Shown here one piece after another: positions 33,181 to 43,640 of a stretch of DNA of 64,000 nt (position 1 is its first letter; each line of letters starts with the position of its first letter). The notes beneath the pieces were generated by a model that worked only from the letters and a program-made list of their open reading frames with translations, did not search any database and was not told the origin of the DNA. Origin of the DNA: Chitinispirillales bacterium (GTDB taxonomy: Bacteria; Fibrobacterota; Chitinivibrionia; Chitinivibrionales; Chitinispirillaceae); NCBI GenBank assembly GCA_031281485.1, contig JAITFI010000045.1:1-64000 (forward strand), written 5' to 3'. A program made the position numbers and the translations under genes.

Positions 33181-34728
33181 TCACTTCTCCAACCACTCTT
33201 CAGGATTAAGCGACTCCGCCCTGAGTTTTATTTCGAAATGCAATTTCGGTCCGCCCGTCGTCCCCGTCTCCCCCGCCTTGCCTATCTCGGCGCCAGATGT
33301 CACTTTGGCGTTTTCCGTTACGGACACCTCGTCTAAGTGGGCATACAGCGTATAGTATCCGCCGCTGTGGTCTATGAATACGCACCTGCCGTAGCCCCGC
33401 ATCCACTTTACAAGCGCCACTTCGCCCGTGGCGACGCTTGCCACAGACGCGCCTTTTTTGGCGGCTATGTCTATGCCGTTGTTCGGGGTTACCGTCTTGT
33501 AAACCGGGTGTATCACGTTGCCGAATTTCCTCACCACCTCTCCGCGCAACGGCCAAGGCAGCTTTCCCTTTCTGTTCTCGAAACTGACCGCCGCCTTACG
33601 CTCTTCCTCCTCCTCCTTGACCTTTTTGCGCCTGCCCTCCAACACCTTTATCATGGCGTTTAGCTCGCCGTGCGCCTCCTCCAACTCCGCGACCATCGCC
33701 TCGTGCGCGCTCTTCTTCGTGCGGATGTCAGAAAGCACCGTGCGCCTCTGCGCCTCCTCCGCCACCAAGGCCTGCTGCTCCCTCTTCTTGTCCGATAACA
33801 GCTTCACCAACTTGTCCCTATTCTCCCCCTGCGCGCTCCTCTTATCGTTCACAGAGGCGATACTCTCCTTGATAGACGCGGCGAGGAGCCTGTCGTGGCG
33901 GTTCAGATCCTGAAAGTAGCGCACGCGGCGGATAAACTCTGACGGGTTGCCGGAAGTAAGCAGCATTTGCAGTCTATTCATGTCGCCTGTCATTTGAGCG
34001 TTGCGCAGCCGCCTCTTCATCAACTCGCGGGCGCGGTACAGGTCGGCCTCCGCCTTAGTCAGGGAGTCTCCGAGCATCTCGATCACTATTTCTGTCGTGT
34101 CAATCTGTTTCTGTACAAGATCCGCGTATTTGCCGGAGGAGTAGATGTTTTTCTCTATCTGCTCCAAGCGGCTCAGGTAGTTCCCCTCCTCGTGCTGCAG
34201 CTCCTTGAAGCGCTGCCTGCCGCGTTCAAGCTCCGCTTTTATGGAGTCTAACGTGCCTTGGGTCTTGCTCAGCTCTTTCTCCACGGCGGCGACGGCGGGG
34301 CTTGACGGTTCCGCGCTCGATCTTTGCTGTGCCGATGTTGACACTGATTTCTTCTGATCCGCGGTTTTCGGTGCTGACTTCGACGTGGATTTTTTTTGAT
34401 TAGCGCCTTTCTGCGACGCCGGCGCTGTTTTCTGCTGATTAGCGCTCTTTTGCGGCGACGGCGCAGATTTTTGCTGACTAACACTCTTCTGCGGCGACGG
34501 CGCTGATTTTTGCTGACCGGCGCTCTTCTGCGGCGACGGCGCTGATTTCTGTTGATCAATACCCTTTTGCGCTGACGGCGCCGATTTCTTTTGAGCGGCG
34601 CCGGAGCTGTCGGGCAGCGCAAATAACGGCGAATAGTGCGCGGCGGCTATTATAAACGCCGCTACGCAGCACCGCGCCGCGAGCGCTATACCAGAAATTT
34701 GCTTACCGCGAGTCTGCTTCCGAGCCAC
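33181..34728 (-). CDS. envC: EnvC-like LytM protein with degenerate zinc site
   Basis: The 515-residue periplasmic protein has a signal peptide, a Lys/Gln/Pro tandem-repeat segment (nt 34324-34593), a long coiled coil with LSKTQGTLDSIKAELERGRQ, and a C-terminal LytM (M23) domain with LYAHLDEVSV and GGPKLHFEI. Two zinc ligands look lost: the first His is Asn (PNNGIDIA) and the HxH pair is KLH. So it is probably an activator of amidases, like EnvC, not an enzyme. The GTG at 34728 is chosen because a signal peptide follows; it overlaps ftsX by 43 nt. FtsX and EnvC are known partners in division. Confidence 0.82.
   Translation of the reverse strand: MARKQTRGKQISGIALAARCCVAAFIIAAAHYSPLFALPDSSGAAQKKSAPSAQKGIDQQKSAPSPQKSAGQQKSAPSPQKSVSQQKSAPSPQKSANQQKTAPASQKGANQKKSTSKSAPKTADQKKSVSTSAQQRSSAEPSSPAVAAVEKELSKTQGTLDSIKAELERGRQRFKELQHEEGNYLSRLEQIEKNIYSSGKYADLVQKQIDTTEIVIEMLGDSLTKAEADLYRARELMKRRLRNAQMTGDMNRLQMLLTSGNPSEFIRRVRYFQDLNRHDRLLAASIKESIASVNDKRSAQGENRDKLVKLLSDKKREQQALVAEEAQRRTVLSDIRTKKSAHEAMVAELEEAHGELNAMIKVLEGRRKKVKEEEEERKAAVSFENRKGKLPWPLRGEVVRKFGNVIHPVYKTVTPNNGIDIAAKKGASVASVATGEVALVKWMRGYGRCVFIDHSGGYYTLYAHLDEVSVTENAKVTSGAEIGKAGETGTTGGPKLHFEIKLRAESLNPEEWLEK
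34324..34593 (-). repeat. 13-residue tandem repeats in the EnvC-like protein
   Basis: About seven copies of a 39-42-nt unit encode QQKSAPSPQKSAG-like blocks. The middle three are nearly identical at the DNA level, so copy number may vary between strains. The segment is a disordered, basic linker between the signal peptide and the coiled coil. Confidence 0.85.
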
Positions 34729-35537
34729 CCGAAAAATACCCCTATGACGACGACGAACGGCAAATAGGAAAAGTGCCAGTTTATGGAAATATTCGACAGA
34801 GCCACCCGCGCCGCGATCATCACGCCGACGCAAAGCACCCCGCCTATGAAACCCTGCAGCATTCCCTCCAAGAGGAAGGGCATCTTAATGAACAGATCTG
34901 TGGCGCCGACGTAGTGCATGTTCCTCACAAGGTCGCGGCGGGCGTAGATGGTCAGCTTTATCGTGTTGGAGATGATGGCGTGCAACGCGAGAAGGATGAC
35001 GAGGCCGGCCGCTATCGATATTATGTAGAAGCGGTCGCGCACCATCTTTATATAGCTCAACCAATCACGCGAGTAGCGCACCGCGTCCACGCCGTTTAGC
35101 ACCGATATCCTCTCCTGCAACTCGGCCGCGGCCTGCGGGGTCTGGCTGCTCTCATAGAGCGTGATGTCGAGCGACGCGGCAAACGGGTTCTCGTCCACCG
35201 CTTCCAGCATCTCCGCGCCGTACATCACCTTAAAACGGCTCCACGCGCTGTCCTTGCTCTGGAAAACCACCGCCTTTACTCCGGGCATCTTTTTTATGGA
35301 GTCAATAAGCCCGCCCCGTTGCGCCAAATCGCCGGACACGCCGTCGCTTAGGTAGACGACCGCGTCCGGCATATCACCCGCGTTACTTAAAATCTCCTCT
35401 ATGTTCATGAGGGCGATAAAGACGCCGCAAATAAGGAAGAGCGTAGCGGCAATGGTCATAATAGAGACAAAAGTCATCAACTTGGCCTGATAGAAGCCGC
35501 GGAACGCCTCGACTATAAAGTAGATTATTTTTCTCAC
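34686..35537 (-). CDS. ftsX: Cell division protein FtsX
   Basis: FtsX is the membrane half of FtsEX, which couples division to peptidoglycan hydrolysis via EnvC. The 283-residue protein has four membrane helices (about 20-44, 170-190, 215-240, 255-275) and the large periplasmic loop between the first two with SKDSAWSRFKVMYG and AASLDITL. The C-terminal signature is IKLTIYARRDLVRNMHYVGA. The stop codon of the upstream gene abuts its start. The ATPase gene ftsE is not adjacent. Confidence 0.93.
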   Translation of the reverse strand: MRKIIYFIVEAFRGFYQAKLMTFVSIMTIAATLFLICGVFIALMNIEEILSNAGDMPDAVVYLSDGVSGDLAQRGGLIDSIKKMPGVKAVVFQSKDSAWSRFKVMYGAEMLEAVDENPFAASLDITLYESSQTPQAAAELQERISVLNGVDAVRYSRDWLSYIKMVRDRFYIISIAAGLVILLALHAIISNTIKLTIYARRDLVRNMHYVGATDLFIKMPFLLEGMLQGFIGGVLCVGVMIAARVALSNISINWHFSYLPFVVVIGVFFGWLGSRLAVSKFLV

Positions 35538-37449: not shown

Positions 37450-37935
37450 TCAACCCAGCGCGTACTTCCCAAAATCCACGGTATCTATCGACCTGATATA
37501 CGCCCGGAGCCTCTCCCCTTCCGATAAGCCCGAGCCGTCCGGTTGTTTGGAGAATACGCTCTCCCGAACGAAAATAGGAGTGCCGCTGCGGGCTGCCAGC
37601 GCCACCGCGTCGCACGGGCGGCAATCGATCACCTTGATCGAAGCCCCCCCGTCGGCCCTGACGACAACGCTGGCGGAGAAGATCCCCTCCTCCGACACGT
37701 CGCTTATGACCGCCCTGTAGACGGACGCGCCCAACTGCTCCGCCACAATCCGCACCAAATCGACGGTAAGCGGCTTGTCGGGCCGCACCAGCAACGTTTG
37801 CATGGCTATGGCGTTGGCGTCGGAGTGGTCAAGAGGAATGGCGACGACGCGCCCCTCGCGATCCTTGAGAATAACCAGCGGCGTCCCCTTGGCGGTGTCT
37901 ATGGCAAGGGAGGAGATTTCAACGGGTACAAGCAT
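37450..37935 (-). CDS. Bifunctional-nuclease-family protein (DUF151)
   Basis: The 161-residue protein begins MLVPVEISSLAIDTAKGTPL and carries the DUF151 pattern: ILKDREGRVVAIPLDHSDAN, RPDKPLTVDLVRIVAEQLGA and CRPCDAVALAARSGTPIFV. BFN-family proteins have DNase/RNase activity in some organisms, but the role here is unproven. The ATG at 37935 is chosen by family length; the binding site, AGGAAGG, is 14 nt away. It is the first gene of the envelope cluster on this strand. Confidence 0.85.
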   Translation of the reverse strand: MLVPVEISSLAIDTAKGTPLVILKDREGRVVAIPLDHSDANAIAMQTLLVRPDKPLTVDLVRIVAEQLGASVYRAVISDVSEEGIFSASVVVRADGGASIKVIDCRPCDAVALAARSGTPIFVRESVFSKQPDGSGLSEGERLRAYIRSIDTVDFGKYALG

Positions 37936-38060
37936 CTTCTGATTTTTGCCCTTCCTAAAAAACTCAGGTACGAATTTGCCGACTTTGCCGACCGCTATTA
38001 CACTGAACAACGTATAAATACTTAATGTACTAATATACATCATCCGTACCCCCAAAGTCA

Positions 38061-38093
38061 AAAAAAAAAGCCCCCGCCGAAACGGGGGCCTTC
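38061..38093 (-). terminator. Intrinsic terminator of the Cys-rich gene
   Basis: On the minus strand GGCCCCCG-TTTCGG-CGGGGGC forms a G/C stem followed by a run of nine T. It ends the 38124-39413 gene. The same sequence ends the paralogue (41907-41937). Confidence 0.9.
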
Positions 38094-38123: not shown

Positions 38124-39413
38124 CTACTTCACAACGCTGATCGTCGACTGCGTTACGATCTTCTTGCCGTTCTGACCCACCGCGTTGATATGCACGAAGT
38201 ACATACCGGCGGGGACGCCGACGGTTCCGAGCTTCACGGAAACCTTGCTGCTGTTCGCCTTGATGAAGGCGGTCGATATAGCCGCGCCCTTCATGTTGAT
38301 CAACTGAACCGTGCCGCTTGAGACCTTGGTCGCGGGGGTCCAGTTGACGGTTACGCGGTTTTTGGCGTAAGAGACCTTGAGACCTTTGGCGACGGACTTG
38401 TTGCCAAGGAGGTGGACGCCGACGGTCGGGGTTAACTCAGGCAAACTGGAACACTGTACATCTTCACCATAGTTATTACCCTCATTTATTCCGCTCGGTT
38501 GAGTCGCTCCCAAGTACAACGCCCCGTTAGTCTGACATTCGTTAAGCACCTGATCGCATGTTTTACCGACATTATCGCCATACTTATTATTGACGCTGTT
38601 GCAACCGGTAGGCCACTGGCAGTAAGAAAATTTACCGTCAACTTTGCAATTTTCAACCGGAGCGGTCGGATCGGTAACAGGAAGATCCGGAGCTTGGGTT
38701 AATTCCGATAAATTAGCGCACCGCACGCCCGCGCCATAGTCGTTACCCTCATTTATCCCGGCCGGCTGACTCGTTCCCAAAAACAAAGTTCCGTAATTTC
38801 GGCAATTGGCAATAACCTCTTCGCATGTTTTTCCGATATTATCAGCGCCATACTTATTATTGACGCTATTGCAGCTTGTTCCCCAATCGCAGTAAGAATA
38901 CTTGCCGTCGGTTTGGCAGTTCTCGCAAACGCCGTCGGCATTACAATTGGCCGCGGTGCCGCCACCGCTGCCGTTGCCGCTTCCATTACCGCTACCGCTT
39001 CCAGACCCACCACCCGTTCCTCCGTTACCGGGAGGCAAGTGATCCGAAGGACACGTCGTCACAACGGTACCGCCGGTGCACGACCCGCCCGGCGCGAGAT
39101 AATAACATCCCCCGTCGCCGCAACTATATTCATCCACTCCCGCCCCAACACACGGACCATAGTCACAAAATTCCCTCGTCGAAGGAGCCTCGGCCTCACA
39201 GTCGGATACAACAACCCCGGAAGAAGCGGTACACTCCGCCGCAGTCTTTTTTTCATCATAAGTACCGCCAAAACCCCAGCAATTCGCCGCACTACCATCC
39301 CACATACAGCAACCTATCGTACCATTTTGGCCAATGGTACAAGTCGCCCACGCCTGCGCCCCCAACCCAGCCAGCAGCCCAACCGCTGCCGCAGCAATCA
39401 AAAACCGTTTCAT
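38124..39413 (-). CDS. Secreted Cys-rich repeat protein with sorting-like tail, paralogue 1
   Basis: The 429-residue protein has a signal peptide (KRFLIAAAAVGLLAGLGAQA). Two Cys-rich repeats of about 80 residues lie at about 165-245 and 250-330, with SYCDWGTSCNSVNNKYG, IGKTCEEVIANC and QPAGINEGNDYG. A Gly/Ser spacer precedes them. The last 95 residues (NKSVAKGLKVSYAKNRVTVN to TISVVK) look like the tail domain that the type IX secretion machinery recognises (motif GAAISTAF, then PAGMYFVHI). This tail is near-identical to the paralogue at 40809. Confidence 0.8.
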   Translation of the reverse strand: MKRFLIAAAAVGLLAGLGAQAWATCTIGQNGTIGCCMWDGSAANCWGFGGTYDEKKTAAECTASSGVVVSDCEAEAPSTREFCDYGPCVGAGVDEYSCGDGGCYYLAPGGSCTGGTVVTTCPSDHLPPGNGGTGGGSGSGSGNGSGNGSGGGTAANCNADGVCENCQTDGKYSYCDWGTSCNSVNNKYGADNIGKTCEEVIANCRNYGTLFLGTSQPAGINEGNDYGAGVRCANLSELTQAPDLPVTDPTAPVENCKVDGKFSYCQWPTGCNSVNNKYGDNVGKTCDQVLNECQTNGALYLGATQPSGINEGNNYGEDVQCSSLPELTPTVGVHLLGNKSVAKGLKVSYAKNRVTVNWTPATKVSSGTVQLINMKGAAISTAFIKANSSKVSVKLGTVGVPAGMYFVHINAVGQNGKKIVTQSTISVVK

Positions 39414-39487
39414 ATGACACTCTCCTTTTAAAAAGTTAAATAATATGGTTAACTGGTTAATTTAAACGATACTTTAAATTACACACT
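39414..39487 (-). promoter_or_regulatory. Conserved upstream region, copy 1
   Basis: The 74 nt before paralogue 1 match those before paralogue 2 (40733-40808): AAGTGTGTAATTTAAAG at the far end, ATCGTTT, then AAGGAGAGTGTC and ATGAAACG at the start. Shared control is likely. Confidence 0.7.
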
Positions 39488-39837
39488 TCAATCCCTACCT
39501 ATATACGGGGATTAAAGCCACACTTTTACGGCGCGAACACCCTACGTACGGACTGCCGCCTCTAAGGCTCCGCCGCCGCGCCCACCACCCTTTTCAGCAT
39601 TCCGCACCCCCCTTTCCTAAGCCGCCCCCGACAGAGCAAGGGCACCGTAACCCGCCCTTCTTCATCCGCAGAAACGTGTTTTTCAGCGAATTCAGCCTCA
39701 AAAACCACAAATACGCCCCATTTGAGGGGGGCAACTATATATATAATCTAATATAGATTATGGAAAAAGTCAATAATATAGTAAAAAAAAATCTATTTCG
39801 GAGTTTTTTAGGGGGTCTTTGACTGTGCCGGAAAGGT
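39488..39837. other. Spacer with one A/T hairpin
   Basis: No gene is visible. A perfect hairpin, ATAATCTA-ATA-TAGATTAT (39743-39761), lies about 80 nt after the YoeB-type gene end and may stop its transcription or act as a binding site. Confidence 0.4.
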
Positions 39838-40179
39838 CTACGTAGGGGCGGTGGGAGGTGGGTGTTGCTTTAAATCAGGTTTTGTGTAGTTATGTCCCCA
39901 CGCACGAACCACGTAGACGATACCGTCGTAAAGATTGCCGTGTTCGTCCACTGCATTTGCGGCATTGGGCAACACCTTGTAAAGAAAACGATTCTTATGA
40001 TTAATTTGCCGAGAGCATAGACCTTTTAGGTTACCTCTAAGACGTTCAAATTTTTGAGATGGGTCGTAGGGGTCATTTTTGACGGTATCTATTATCTTGT
40101 CTAACTGCGCTTTAAATCCGGCGCTTTTACAGATTGAAACGTCTTTTTTGGCCTGCTTCGTACGTTGTATTTTATACAT
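39838..40179 (-). CDS. YoeB/Txe-type toxin
   Basis: This is a ribosome-dependent mRNA interferase of the YoeB/RelE superfamily. The 113-residue protein has MYKIQRTKQAKKDVSICKSA, then FERLRGNLKGLCSRQINHKN and FLYKVLP, and VYVVRAWGHNY with the catalytic-type His near the end. The C-terminal extension (residues about 100-113, Pro-rich) is longer than usual. I start at ATG 40179, which overlaps the antitoxin stop codon as TAATG. The gene is downstream of its antitoxin, the normal order. Confidence 0.9.
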   Translation of the reverse strand: MYKIQRTKQAKKDVSICKSAGFKAQLDKIIDTVKNDPYDPSQKFERLRGNLKGLCSRQINHKNRFLYKVLPNAANAVDEHGNLYDGIVYVVRAWGHNYTKPDLKQHPPPTAPT

Positions 40180-40448
40180 TAATCGTCCCAATCCTCATAC
40201 TCGTTTAACGGCGTTTTCATCAACTCTATTAACGATTCCGCCATACCCGGAATAGCGTTCAAATAAGCCGTAGTGTCGGGATAGTCGTCAGGATCGATGT
40301 CGTATTCCTCCGGCACGACGCCTGTTTCGTCTACCACCGGGGTCAGCACCACCCTATCGGATTCCGCAGATACTAAAACGCGCGGCGACCCTATAAATGA
40401 CAAAATGGTCTCCGGTAACGTTTGACGGTCAATTACTAATGTTGTCAT
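40179..40448 (-). CDS. Phd/YefM-like antitoxin
   Basis: The 89-residue protein has a beta-rich N-terminus (TLVIDRQTLPETILSFIGSP and VLTPVVDE) and the acidic C-terminus typical of antitoxins of YoeB-type toxins: TAYLNAIPGMAESLIELMKT followed by PLNEYEDWDD. It overlaps the toxin gene by 1 nt. GGAG lies upstream of its start. It probably represses its own operon. Confidence 0.85.
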   Translation of the reverse strand: MTTLVIDRQTLPETILSFIGSPRVLVSAESDRVVLTPVVDETGVVPEEYDIDPDDYPDTTAYLNAIPGMAESLIELMKTPLNEYEDWDD

Positions 40449-40574
40449 ATTGCGCTCCTTGCCTATAAAACGGCCTTTTGAGGGATACCGCTATTTAACG
40501 TAATATAGTTTACGCCAAATGTCAACACTTATAATAAAAAATCACTTCTGTATTTTTAGCCTTTGACTTTGATT

Positions 40575-40637
40575 TTATATATGCGGGGTTTAGCCCCGCA
40601 TATCCTATGAAGCCCCGAAGGGGCTTCGTCTAAAAAA
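40575..40637. repeat. Dispersed two-hairpin repeat family A, copy 3
   Basis: This copy has the constant ATATGCGGGG/CCCCGCATAT hairpin but a longer second hairpin, AAGCCCC-GAA-GGGGCTT. It lies between divergent genes, so it is not simply a terminator here. Confidence 0.8.
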
Positions 40638-40732
40638 GAATTTGATTTTAAAGCTTTTAAAGATTTTAAAGAATTGGCCGTATTCATATAAAATACCTAT
40701 GCTTTAACTCCTGCCGTTGGATGACAAAAAGT

Positions 40733-40808
40733 GTGTAATTTAAAGGATCGTTTTAATTAGCCAATTATCAACTATCTTATTTAAACTTTTTTTCAAGGAG
40801 AGTGTCCT
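40733..40808 (+). promoter_or_regulatory. Conserved upstream region, copy 2
   Basis: It begins with AAGTGTGTAATTTAAAG and ends with AAGGAGAGTGTCCT before the ATG, matching copy 1 (39414-39487) with few differences. Confidence 0.7.
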
Positions 40809-41876
40809 ATGAAACGTTTTTTGATTGTGGCGGCAGTGGCTGTTATGTTGACGGGGTTGGGGGCGCAGGCGGCGGATTATACTGCCTGTACCGGCGCGAC
40901 CGCGGGGTATTGCAAGTGGGATGAGTGCTATGCCATCAACACTTGTTCGGGCACCGGCTGCGGAGAAACCGGTACCGATTGCAGTGTTGAGTATCAGAAA
41001 TGCTTACAATATTCGAGTTCGCATTCTGTGTATAGCGACGCCGCCTGCTCCCAAGCCAAGGAACAAAGCGCGATTCAGGAGTGCGGTGAGTGGTGCGATT
41101 GGGGCGCGAACGGTTGTCACCCGATTAAGACAAATCCTACCGCTTCAACAGATGATCCGACAGTGACAACAACTTGTGCGGAAGCAAAAGCAAATTGCGA
41201 TGCCGGAGGGTCGGGGAGATTTGACAACGCTACTTGTTCCGGCGATCCGATAGGCGGGGCACGGGGTTGCGGTGATTATTGCGATTGGGGAGCGGGAGGT
41301 TGCTGGGAGATAAAGCCGGACACTACTTATACCACTTGCGAGGCGGCCATTGCGCACTGCGACGCCGACGGCGCGAGGTACAGTTCTTCCACTTGCACCG
41401 GTACCCAAGTCGGAGGCGAACAGTCTTGCGGCGGTTCCTGCCTATGGGAAACAGGTTGTGTTGAACTTAAGACAAATGCCAATAACACGCCGGAACCGAT
41501 ACTCACTTGCGAGGCGGCAAGGGCGAATTGCCAGTCGTTCGGGCAGTTGTTTTCTGATGGCAGCTGCCAAACCCCGGTCAGCGTTCGTTTGATCGCCAAC
41601 AAGTCCGTCGCCAAAGGTCTCAAGGTCTCCTACGCCAAAAACCGCGTAACCGTCAACTGGACCCCCGCAACCAAGGTCTCAAGCGGCACGGTTCAGCTGA
41701 TCAACATGAAGGGCGCGGCTATATCGACCGCCTTCATCAAGGCGAACAGCAGCAAGGTTTCCGTGAAACTCGGAACCGTCGGCGTCCCCGCCGGTATGTA
41801 CTTCGTGCATATCAACGCAGTGGGCCAAAACGGCAAGAAGATCGTAACGCAGTCGACGATCAGCATTGTGAAGTAG
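40809..41876 (+). CDS. Secreted Cys-rich repeat protein with sorting-like tail, paralogue 2
   Basis: The 355-residue protein has a signal peptide and repeats of about 55 residues, each carrying a CDWGA-GC or CLWETGC core and a CxEAxxxCD motif (for example CGDYCDWGAGGCWEIK). The C-terminal 95 residues are identical to paralogue 1 except for one or two positions, while the Cys-rich parts differ strongly. The upstream region and terminator are also shared. Cys-rich repeats suggest a disulphide-stabilised surface or secreted protein. A paralogue-wide role is not known. Confidence 0.8.
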   Translation: MKRFLIVAAVAVMLTGLGAQAADYTACTGATAGYCKWDECYAINTCSGTGCGETGTDCSVEYQKCLQYSSSHSVYSDAACSQAKEQSAIQECGEWCDWGANGCHPIKTNPTASTDDPTVTTTCAEAKANCDAGGSGRFDNATCSGDPIGGARGCGDYCDWGAGGCWEIKPDTTYTTCEAAIAHCDADGARYSSSTCTGTQVGGEQSCGGSCLWETGCVELKTNANNTPEPILTCEAARANCQSFGQLFSDGSCQTPVSVRLIANKSVAKGLKVSYAKNRVTVNWTPATKVSSGTVQLINMKGAAISTAFIKANSSKVSVKLGTVGVPAGMYFVHINAVGQNGKKIVTQSTISIVK

Positions 41877-41906
41877 GTTAAAGCATTTATTGGTACTGAT
41901 TGATGA

Positions 41907-41937
41907 AAGCCCCCGTTTCGGCGGGGGCTTTTTTTTC
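41907..41937 (+). terminator. Intrinsic terminator of Cys-rich paralogue 2
   Basis: AAGCCCCCG-TTTCG-GCGGGGGCTT is followed by a run of eight T. It also faces the end of the convergent gene at 41957. Confidence 0.92.
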
Positions 41938-41956: not shown

Positions 41957-43483
41957 CTATCTCGGCGGCTGATAGTCAGACTGCTTCATGGCCGTTAGCG
42001 TATGGATATACCGGTACCGCGTCGGCGACGGCAGCATCTTGAACATGTGGGTGTCGGCCCCGCCGAAATAGAGGAAGAGGACGGCCATACCGTAATCCAC
42101 ATCCGCCAAATATGTAATCCCGGAGGGGCTGATCTGCACATCGGGAACGCCGACGTTGCACGTCGAGGTGGGAGTGTCTCCCGTAGACATACCGCCCTCG
42201 ACCCTTGTGCACGGTATCCCCCACGGCACGTCAACGGTCTTGTCGCCGAAATAGGCGAAATAGGCGTACGCGGCGGCCCGCAACTCCTCCCTCTCTATAT
42301 AGCCGGGTTTAGCCCAAACGGAATCTTCCTTTCTGGAAGAAGAGGCGTTTAAATAGGTTTTGGCATTGAAGCCCCAGTCGCCGGACTGGGTGACCACGAG
42401 GCTGACCTCGGATATCTTGTCGCCCGTCACCTTGAGGCGGGCGCCGAGAACATACTGCTTGGGATTCTTACCCCTGGCCGTATCGGCGATAATGATCTCC
42501 GTAAAAGTGGCGCACTCCTGCACATCGATAAGGTTGCGGTGGAAATCCGGCTTGAGCGGCGTCTTCCAGAGGCCTTCGCCGAACGGAACCGCCTTGTCGT
42601 ACGTCGTCTTGCCGCCGGAGTACGTCTGTTTGGCGCTGTTGTCGTTCTCAATGTATTTGGCATTCGGGGCGAGGGGCATCAGATTGTGGTTGCCGGCCTG
42701 AAGCGCCGCCAAGTAGGCGTCCACAGCCGCCGTCAAACCATCGCGGCTGCAACCTATCCCGCCCGACGCTGTACTTTTCGGCGTAAGCGTTATATTTTGC
42801 AACTGGTTCATACCTTTCACCGGGGTGAACTCGTATGAAACGGTGTCATATCCGGTCGCTGTCGCCTTTATAGTCCAAGAAGCGGCATCCAGGCTGTTCA
42901 CCTCTTTCTTCAACCGATCGGCGGACGCCGCGTTCTCGCCGCCGAACGTAACGCTGACATTCAGGCTCCCGCCACCGTGGGCGTGGCGGGCGGTGAAGGA
43001 GCCGCCGTCTATCCCCTTAACCGATAGAACGTACGCCCCGGCCGCGATATTAGGGTGGGATATGTTGTTTACGGCGCTTGAAGCGGTCACTTTCTCGGAC
43101 ATGACACGCTTTCCGTTTACGGTATACAGCGAAACTTCCGCGCTTTTGTACGACGCCGCCGGCAAGTTCAGGGAGACCTTCCCAGCCGAGCTTTTGATCA
43201 TCGCCGGAACGCCGGCCTGACCATGCGTCCAATACGATATAGAAGAGGTCTTTGGGAGGCGGATGATCAACGTATCCGTCAGTTTGGTCGTCAGGGTGCG
43301 CGCGCCCCCGACCCCGCCCGAACCATCCGGGGGCTGTATAGATACAGTGGCGGATACGTTTACCTTGACCGGCACCTTAGCCGTGTCCAAAGACTGCGAG
43401 AACGCTCCTACCGCGATGGCCGACACGAACATTATGGCCGTGACAGCCGATTTCTTCAAGAACTGATTTTGAGCGGTACTCAT
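41957..43483 (-). CDS. Secreted DUF8021-like protein
   Basis: The 508-residue protein starts at ATG 43483 with AAGGAGGT upstream and has a signal peptide (AVTAIMFVSAIAVGAFS). The N-terminal third has a sorting-tail-like beta domain inside the chain (VSLYTVNGKRVMSEKV and GAYVLSVKGIDG). The middle and C-terminal part (about 245-430) fits a DUF8021-type fold: AAVDAYLAALQAGNHNLMPL followed by APNAKYIEN, then GEGLWKTPL, QYVLGARLKVTGDKISEVSL and CTRVEGGMSTGD. Its activity is unknown. It is convergent with paralogue 2. Confidence 0.7.
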   Translation of the reverse strand: MSTAQNQFLKKSAVTAIMFVSAIAVGAFSQSLDTAKVPVKVNVSATVSIQPPDGSGGVGGARTLTTKLTDTLIIRLPKTSSISYWTHGQAGVPAMIKSSAGKVSLNLPAASYKSAEVSLYTVNGKRVMSEKVTASSAVNNISHPNIAAGAYVLSVKGIDGGSFTARHAHGGGSLNVSVTFGGENAASADRLKKEVNSLDAASWTIKATATGYDTVSYEFTPVKGMNQLQNITLTPKSTASGGIGCSRDGLTAAVDAYLAALQAGNHNLMPLAPNAKYIENDNSAKQTYSGGKTTYDKAVPFGEGLWKTPLKPDFHRNLIDVQECATFTEIIIADTARGKNPKQYVLGARLKVTGDKISEVSLVVTQSGDWGFNAKTYLNASSSRKEDSVWAKPGYIEREELRAAAYAYFAYFGDKTVDVPWGIPCTRVEGGMSTGDTPTSTCNVGVPDVQISPSGITYLADVDYGMAVLFLYFGGADTHMFKMLPSPTRYRYIHTLTAMKQSDYQPPR

Positions 43484-43640
43484 GATAAGTACCTCCTTTT
43501 TGTGGATATATGTTGCGAGGGTATCGTAACGGCGTAATAGTGCCGCAGCGCCGTATGCTATATTATAGTAATATAATACAAAAAATGGGGGGATGTTATG
43601 TTTTTTTTGAGGCACATTACTAAATCAAAATCTTAAAAAT

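What the first reader, a model, noticed from the sequence alone, without database searches (positions are those of the whole stretch)
38124..41876. Cys-rich paralogues share tail, promoter and terminator but not the body
Two genes 1.4 kb apart, in opposite directions, have tails of about 95 residues that are almost identical in DNA, matching 75-nt upstream regions and the same terminator, while the Cys-rich bodies differ strongly. This pattern suggests cassettes in which the variable centre is replaced between constant ends, possibly by recombination. It could serve surface variation.
Basis: partly seen in the sequence, partly recalled or inferred. Interest (0 to 1): 0.55.

Follow-up and report, generated by a model that had tools for sequence, protein, structure and literature searches.

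The report
Surface proteins: shared ends, different middles
Two neighbouring genes of a probable termite-gut bacterium encode cysteine-rich, probably exported proteins whose tails and start regions have apparently been kept alike by DNA recombination while the middles differ, and relatives carry the same module on cellulases, so they may be grips for plant fibre.

Summary
Genes A (38124-39413, -) and B (40809-41876, +) share a tail in which 8 of 92 codons differ, 7 silently, a similar 5' block and terminator, but divergent Cys-rich bodies. The tail is a T9SS type A sorting-domain relative; SprA is present in 24 of 24 family genomes. Tail dS is 0.13 between A and B but 0.54 to the syntenic copy in a sister genome, so the tails became alike recently. 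One clade of A and B units is rejected (p 0.0002), but whole-body trees are inconclusive (p 0.245) and some proteins hold both unit classes. Similar pairs occur in a distant family. The unit matches no Pfam family; in that family it also sits on GH5 cellulases and a FISUMP protein. Best reading: T9SS-exported, disulfide-rich, perhaps fibre-binding proteins whose ends evolve in concert. 'Constant ends, variable centre, recombination' holds; a switching system is not shown: no donor copies were found in the 68%-complete genome, and inversion here would be silent. Two other divergent pairs have a tyrosine recombinase between them.

The parts
38124..39413 (-). gene A, 429 aa, 26 Cys: signal-peptide-like start, N-terminal Cys-rich region, Gly/Ser linker, two long-type Cys units, T9SS-like tail
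   Evidence: ORF; units; tail PF18962 23.6 bits
40809..41876 (+). gene B, 355 aa, 26 Cys: signal-peptide-like start, four C-x-W pattern units of which three match the unit model, T9SS-like tail
   Evidence: ORF; units; tail PF18962 24.0 bits
38113..38423 (-). constant tail block of A (T9SS type A sorting-domain relative), running past the stop codon
   Evidence: inverted arm, 311 nt, 94%
41577..41887 (+). constant tail block of B
   Evidence: inverted arm, 311 nt, 94%; 8 of 92 codons differ from A, 7 silent
39351..39488 (-). constant 5' block of A: upstream region, RBS-like AAGGAG, first codons
   Evidence: arms 39351-39434 (83%) and 39450-39488 (90%)
40729..40871 (+). constant 5' block of B
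   Evidence: apart from ~20-nt matches found only at A and B in the genome
38062..38108 (-). terminator region of A
   Evidence: 89% alike with 41890-41936
41890..41936 (+). terminator region of B
39192..39320 (-). N-terminal Cys unit of A
   Evidence: E 4.5e-6 (this unit was a row of the model)
38712..38903 (-). long-type Cys unit of A (first)
   Evidence: E 5.9e-23 (a row of the model)
38445..38630 (-). long-type Cys unit of A (second)
   Evidence: E 3.6e-25 (a row of the model)
41082..41273 (+). short-type Cys unit of B
   Evidence: E 2.9e-18 (a row of the model)
41268..41429 (+). short-type Cys unit of B
   Evidence: E 7.1e-18 (a row of the model)
41427..41570 (+). short-type Cys unit of B
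   Evidence: E 2.9e-14 (a row of the model)
39838..40191 (-). Txe/YoeB-type toxin gene between A and B; not part of the proposed mechanism
   Evidence: TIGR02116 54.5 bits, cut-off 51.8; PF06769
40179..40448 (-). small ORF before the toxin gene, presumed antitoxin
   Evidence: position and length only; no family hit

Best explanation
A and B are probably exported proteins of a Chitinispirillales bacterium (phylum Fibrobacterota). A signal peptide takes them through the inner membrane, and the C-terminal tail, a T9SS type A sorting-domain relative, takes them through the type IX system to the surface or outside. The bodies are strings of about 50-65-residue disulfide-rich units. The same kind of unit occurs, behind linkers, on GH5 cellulases and a FISUMP protein in another family of the phylum, so the likely job is binding plant cell-wall polysaccharide or holding cells and enzymes on fibre. 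The bodies derive from two old unit classes; the leaders and above all the tails are kept alike inside a genome by homologous recombination (gene conversion) between the paralogues. Shown: the like ends, tail divergence lower than to the sister genome's copy, the unit family with its GH5/FISUMP partners, presence of SprA. Inferred: gene conversion as the process, export, disulfides, binding.
For: Tail: PF18962 E about 5e-5, TIGR04183 E about 1e-4; all-strand tail domain in the model; SprA over cut-off in 24 of 24 family genomes, 0 of 14 controls. Recent homogenisation: last 47 codons dS A-B 0.13, A-G003 0.54, B-G003 0.68; between the same genomes 0.28 for a neighbour gene and 0.37 for the C71 tail; at the 5 A/B differences in the last 144 nt G003 agrees with A at 4, B at 1. 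Bodies: A's and B's units as one clade rejected, p-AU 0.0002; A's body nearer to G019.C160 (106 bits) and B's to G003.C65 (124) than to each other (51). Similar pairs: G073:C80 tail dS 0.22, body 1.28; G074:C275 0.31 and 1.25; G067 C86b/C29 0.19 and saturated. Function: GH5 E 4e-55 and 3e-54 in proteins with a unit, FISUMP E 1e-30 and 3e-46 in proteins with a unit; GH8 and GH5 neighbours in other genomes; unit model 0 hits on 24 reversed and 1200 Cys-keeping shuffled proteins, 18 on the 24 real ones.
Against: hmmscan scores of the tails are just under the curated cut-offs (23.6/24.0 vs 27; 21.5/21.9 vs 23). A whole-body tree did not reject A+B (p-AU 0.245), nor the G067 (0.171) or G065 (0.282) pair. 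G003.C65 and G066.C307 hold units of both classes in one protein, so a mixed ancestor with complementary losses could also part A from B. 4 of 24 genes (both of G073:C80, G074.C275b, G071.C51b) have their best body partner in their own genome. In G067 C86a/C86b the leader is identical but tail dS is 1.1. Tail-body incongruence could also come from body replacement between strains. No glycosidase was found beside A and B: no GH5 in the window by a local model, none among nine neighbours scanned with Pfam. Sugar binding rests on association. Unit model pLDDT 60, no fold match.
Confidence: 0.6

Rival explanations
1. Plain recent inverted duplication of one gene, followed by complementary unit losses and very fast divergence of the body, with tail and leader held by purifying selection.
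For: 4 of 24 genes have best body partners within the genome; whole-body test does not reject A+B; proteins with both unit classes exist (G003.C65, G066.C307).
Against: Silent sites of the tail are also alike (dS 0.11 over 93 codons) while body dS is over 1 or saturated; no stretch of A and B between leader and tail is alike at DNA level, though leftovers of a recent duplication should be; units as one clade rejected.
Confidence: 0.18
2. Cassette replacement for surface variation: the middle is swapped between constant ends from a store or from other strains, perhaps with a recombinase.
For: Body/tail incongruence; a tyrosine recombinase lies between the two divergent unit genes in G073:C80 (PF00589 E 8e-22) and a homologue in G065:C165; a T9SS parallel in Porphyromonas gingivalis (PMC5266723, abstract and passages).
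Against: No donor copies found in the 68%-complete genome; no matching recombinase in the window; inversion between the arms would leave the proteins nearly unchanged; no population data.
Confidence: 0.2
3. The units are not carbohydrate binders but structural spacers, a disulfide-linked coat, or protein docking modules.
For: High Cys content; units on GH5 enzymes and as repeats in tailed proteins would also suit docking; FISUMP has been suggested as a possible cohesin analogue (PMC4704652, section 18).
Against: One and the same unit on enzymes and tailed proteins fits a binding module better than a two-partner dock (reasoning); nothing measured.
Confidence: 0.3

Closest known systems
T9SS type A sorting domain (PF18962 / TIGR04183)
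   Same: C-terminal, about 80-95 residues, all-strand domain in the model, SprA in the genome
   Different: scores a little under the curated cut-offs by hmmscan; alike at silent sites between two genes, which sorting function alone does not need
Porphyromonas gingivalis gingipain / HagA adhesin family (PMC5266723)
   Same: T9SS proteins with a conserved C-terminal domain and modular adhesin bodies, domain rearrangement and allelic exchange
   Different: there shown among strains; here seen between paralogues and species of Fibrobacterota, with another module and no strain data
Carbohydrate-binding modules of cellulases (CBM families)
   Same: small domain joined by a linker to GH5 enzymes in relatives
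   Different: no Pfam CBM match for any of 18 units at E<=1; binding not shown
FISUMP (TIGR02145) and fibro-slime attachment proteins of Fibrobacteres (PMC4704652)
   Same: putative extracellular fibre-attachment proteins of this phylum; unit found in FISUMP proteins
   Different: other sequence family; the unit was found in 16 of 167 phylum genomes

Membership tests
T9SS type A cargo | C-terminal sorting domain matching PF18962/TIGR04183 | tested here: inconclusive
   E 5e-5 to 2e-4, slightly under cut-off by hmmscan; 27.4 bits, over cut-off 27, in the genome search
T9SS type A cargo | T9SS translocon SprA in the genome | tested here: met
   own genome C37; 24 of 24 family genomes over cut-off; 0 of 14 controls
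T9SS type A cargo | other core parts (PorV, PorU, GldK-N) | not tested
   no call made
T9SS type A cargo | N-terminal signal peptide | not tested
   read by eye only (MKRFLI...GAQA); no predictor available
carbohydrate-binding module | sequence match to a known CBM family | tested here: not met
   18 units against Pfam-A at E<=1: none; PDB profile search: best E 0.067, a growth-factor-binding protein
carbohydrate-binding module | linker-joined to glycosidases | tested here: met
   GH5 + Ser-rich linker + unit in G071:C31 and G070:C175, G068:C28 by a local GH5 model; all in the other family, not in A or B
carbohydrate-binding module | measured binding to polysaccharide | not testable with these tools
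   needs protein
cassette-swap surface variation | silent donor copies in the genome | tested here: not met
   near-identical tail only in A and B, leader only in A and B, unit only in A and B; assembly 68% complete
cassette-swap surface variation | variation among isolates | not testable with these tools
   one genome per species held; the orthologue in G003 is cut by the contig end
recombinase-driven inversion | site-specific recombinase beside the repeats | tested here: not met
   no match to the G073 recombinase among window ORFs of 120 aa or more; present in 2 other loci
integron cassette array | integron integrase | tested here: not met
   the two recombinases of the other loci score 51 and 73 bits against a cut-off of 265 for TIGR02249; attC sites not searched

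The most novel reading that the evidence does not exclude
In gut Fibrobacterota a family of fibre-binding proteins is diversified by a landing-pad arrangement: near-identical leader and T9SS-tail blocks, kept alike by gene conversion, let new strings of a so far unnamed cellulose-binding unit be dropped in between them, in some lineages with the help of a tyrosine recombinase lodged between divergent pairs; the wood-attachment repertoire is thus reshuffled.
Probability: 0.18. Interest if true: 0.8.

Novelty: new variant of a known kind. Interest (0 to 1): 0.55.

Why it matters
It gives a sequence-level handle on how fibre-degrading Fibrobacterota may hold on to plant fibre: an unnamed Cys-rich module joined to GH5 cellulases and FISUMP proteins, and a T9SS-tailed protein family whose ends look homogenised while bodies diverge. 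One survey reports about four times fewer CBMs in Fibromonadaceae and Chitinivibrionia than in Fibrobacteraceae, and no clostridial-like cohesins or dockerins in the phylum (PMC4704652, section 18), so an unrecognised binding module would fill a gap and is easy to test.

Tried and rejected
Inversion switch between the two genes: rejected on anatomy (each gene's upstream region, start and body lie inside the tail repeats). Silent cassettes: none found. Integron: scores far under cut-off. Assembly artefact: unlikely, both genes are in one 77-kb contig with several differences, and similar pairs occur elsewhere. Whole-body trees: too poor, tests not significant. Structure: unit model pLDDT 60 with no usable fold match; body of B under 50. 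A profile of A-type repeats alone found only A itself in the window, so the kinship of A's and B's units rests on the wider set. In one search the 24 proteins had been picked by earlier hits or by the C-x-W pattern, so 18 of 24 is no detection rate; the six not found (G073.C80a and b, G071.C51a, G067.C86a, G067.C29, G065.C165a) are unit genes by the pattern only (G073.C80b also at E 2.7e-4). Pairs were picked after seeing tail identity: examples, not a sample. Naming more genomes: the single genome-contig scan gave two loci. On recheck the 92-codon count replaced an earlier 93, and the mixed-class proteins were added; for the latter the confidence went from 0.62 to 0.60 and rival 1 from 0.15 to 0.18.
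Full report
What is there. Gene A (38124-39413, -, 429 aa) and gene B (40809-41876, +, 355 aa) face away from each other with starts 1.4 kb apart. Inverted arms: 311 nt (94%) for tails and first bases past the stops, 47 nt (89%) for the terminators, 84 nt (83%) and 39 nt (90%) for the 5' blocks. BLASTN gives 343/372 for the 3' block and 117/143 for the 5' block. Of the last 92 codons 8 differ, 7 silently. Between the leaders lie a Txe/YoeB toxin gene (TIGR02116, 54.5 bits, cut-off 51.8) and a small ORF, presumably its antitoxin. Nine further window proteins around the pair scanned with Pfam gave M23 peptidase, FtsX, periplasmic-binding, BFN nuclease, PIN, CsgG-like, helicase and OmpA families and one without a hit; no glycosidase.

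The genome. The window is contig C84 of a 2.28-Mb, 107-contig assembly, 68% complete. A sister genome of the same genus, G003, has a contig (C43) of the same length and with the same hit position as JAITCM010000032.1, 'Chitinispirillales bacterium isolate Nl494_bin39'; that they are the same is inferred. Chitinispirillales is an order of Fibrobacterota. That it comes from a termite gut is inferred from recalled naming habits; no call says so, and a literature search for the name found nothing relevant.

The tail. It matches PF18962 and TIGR04183 at E 5e-5 to 2e-4, slightly under the curated cut-offs by hmmscan and slightly over in the genome search (27.4 vs 27, which lists 32 places at E<=1, 15 of them over the cut-off; the same search also rings, under the cut-off, in 6 of 14 control genomes). 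The model of B has blocks of pLDDT 60-86 over residues 271-355, all strands; the body is mostly under 50. Fold search ranks MD-1/NPC2 chains first at low TM and then FnIII/Ig-like domains. SprA is over cut-off in 24 of 24 genomes of the family and in 0 of 14 controls. Other T9SS parts were not searched.

Copies. In the own genome the tail search (E<=10) gives A, B, C71 (47%; 628 aa, 6 Cys, beside a GH5 gene) and two weak places. Each of the seven other genus genomes has a match in a frame of 626-711 aa like C71's; G003 has two more. The leader matches A and B and two ~20-nt places. The Cys unit matches only A and B in this genome. Six of eight genus genomes have the flanking gene 37450-38061: in G003 the A tail stands beside it, cut at the contig end; in G001, G002, G004 and G005 no Cys-rich gene was seen there.

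Timing. In the last 47 codons dS is 0.13 between A and B, 0.54 between A and G003, 0.68 between B and G003; over 93 codons A-B is 0.11. Between the two genomes the gene 34686-35537 has dS 0.28 and the C71 tail 0.37. The 21-codon leader has A-B dS 0.38 (all). So the A/B tails became alike after the two species parted, while the leaders look older (few codons). Of five A/B differences in the last 144 nt, G003 agrees with A at four and with B at one, which suggests, on few sites, that A's tail is nearer the old state.

The bodies. Both consist of a unit [YFWS]-C-x-W-x(2-8)-C ... C-x(3)-G ... C. A profile of 18 units, all from this family, matches 16 of 167 genomes of the phylum in 3 of 40 genera: 5 of 8 of this genus, one of g4, ten of g33 in another family, f8. 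Scored on 24 proteins already picked as members it finds 18; it finds 0 of 24 reversed and 0 of 1200 shuffles that keep Cys in place. A tree of 20 units splits them into a long class (A) and a short class (B), each with members from both families; holding A's and B's units together is rejected (p-AU 0.0002), B with two G003 units and A with G019 are not (0.25, 0.41). Against a simple reading: G003.C65 and G066.C307 each have units in both classes. A whole-body tree is too weak: A+B p-AU 0.245, G067 pair 0.171, G065 pair 0.282. By BLAST without composition correction A's body is nearest to G019.C160 (106 bits) and B's to G003.C65 (124), against 51 between them.

Similar pairs elsewhere. In g33: G073:C80 (divergent; tail 94%, dS 0.22; body dS 1.28), G074:C275 (0.31; 1.25), G071:C51 (0.60; 2.39), G067 C86b/C29 (0.19; body saturated; 3' flank 79/80), G067 C86a/C86b (75-nt upstream 74/74 but tail dS 1.12); G065:C165 tails 91% aa, bodies without a BLAST hit. 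Of 24 listed genes 13 have a within-genome partner with tail identity of 75% or more; for 10 of the 13 the best body partner is in another genome (one of these narrowly, G071.C51c, 127 against 124 bits); exceptions are G073.C80a, C80b and G074.C275b. A tail query from G067 found 23 places in the ten g33 genomes; 17 have the C-x-W pattern and 6 do not (one of the six is cut by the contig start).

Recombinase. In the stretches fetched, six loci hold two or more unit genes with tails on one contig (G000:C84, G073:C80, G074:C275, G071:C51, G067:C86, G065:C165). Three are divergent; in two of these, G073:C80 and G065:C165, a tyrosine recombinase of one family lies between the genes (PF00589 E 8e-22). 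In the window a toxin-antitoxin pair stands there, and no window ORF of 120 aa or more matches the recombinase; nor do ORFs of the three tandem loci. G073:C80 has a second such gene near an ORF that looks DnaB-like by eye, so these may simply be mobile-element integrases.

Function. GH5 cellulases with a linker and a C-terminal unit: G071:C31 (E 3.8e-55), G070:C175 (3.1e-54), and G068:C28 by a local model. FISUMP proteins with a unit: G075:C126, and G001:C64 of this genus. GH5 genes next to unit genes: G067:C86 (two, one confirmed with Pfam), C29, C19, G001:C127, G019:C22 (local model); GH8 next to G068:C14 (PF01270 E 1.4e-31). No unit matches a Pfam CBM at E<=1; the PDB profile search gave nothing significant. 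Termite Fibrobacterota, Chitinispirillaceae included, are reported with GH5, GH8 and GH9 (PMC11481507, passages); attachment genes of the phylum are in PMC4704652 (passages and section 18). Searches for earlier mention: 'Fibrobacteres, termite, type IX secretion' 5 papers, listing only; 'Fibrobacteres, termite, cellulose-binding' 18, 15 listed; 'Fibrobacter, cysteine-rich, carbohydrate-binding module' 0; 'Fibrobacterota, termite, cysteine-rich' 1, on snails, listing only; 'tyrosine recombinase, surface protein, inverted, type IX secretion' 0; 'type IX secretion, C-terminal domain, gene conversion' 1, the P. gingivalis paper. These cover open-licence PMC papers only.

Verdict. Switching is not shown, and an inversion would be silent here. 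The most likely role is a T9SS-exported, fibre-binding, disulfide-rich protein.

Noticed in passing
window 41957-43615 (-): A 552-aa protein with a T9SS-tail-like domain in its middle (146-201) instead of at its end; 12 matches to it in the own genome including itself, most over part of residues 36-293.
   Followed up: partly
window 39838-40448 (-): Txe/YoeB-type toxin with a small upstream ORF, placed between the two leaders.
   Followed up: partly
L167 81-503 and 1-26 (G065:C165): A VapC-like toxin ORF near the unit-gene pair, and at the contig start 26 bases that match the end of the tail, perhaps a third copy cut off.
   Followed up: no
L124 3096-3857, L167 703-1476, L172 4753-5388: ORFs with a similar C-terminus (by eye) stand next to unit genes in three genomes; no NCBIfam match at 0.001.
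   Followed up: partly
L040 1-144 (G003:C43): The sister genome's contig begins inside the tail of the A orthologue, as an assembly would at a repeat, so G003 may have a second near-identical tail.
   Followed up: no
L134 4188-11456 (G067:C9): A 2422-aa ORF with a GH5 match (local model) and three C-x-W pattern units.
   Followed up: no
window 38125-38424 (-), shifted frame: The tail block is also open in a second frame on the same strand for about 100 codons; probably chance.
   Followed up: no
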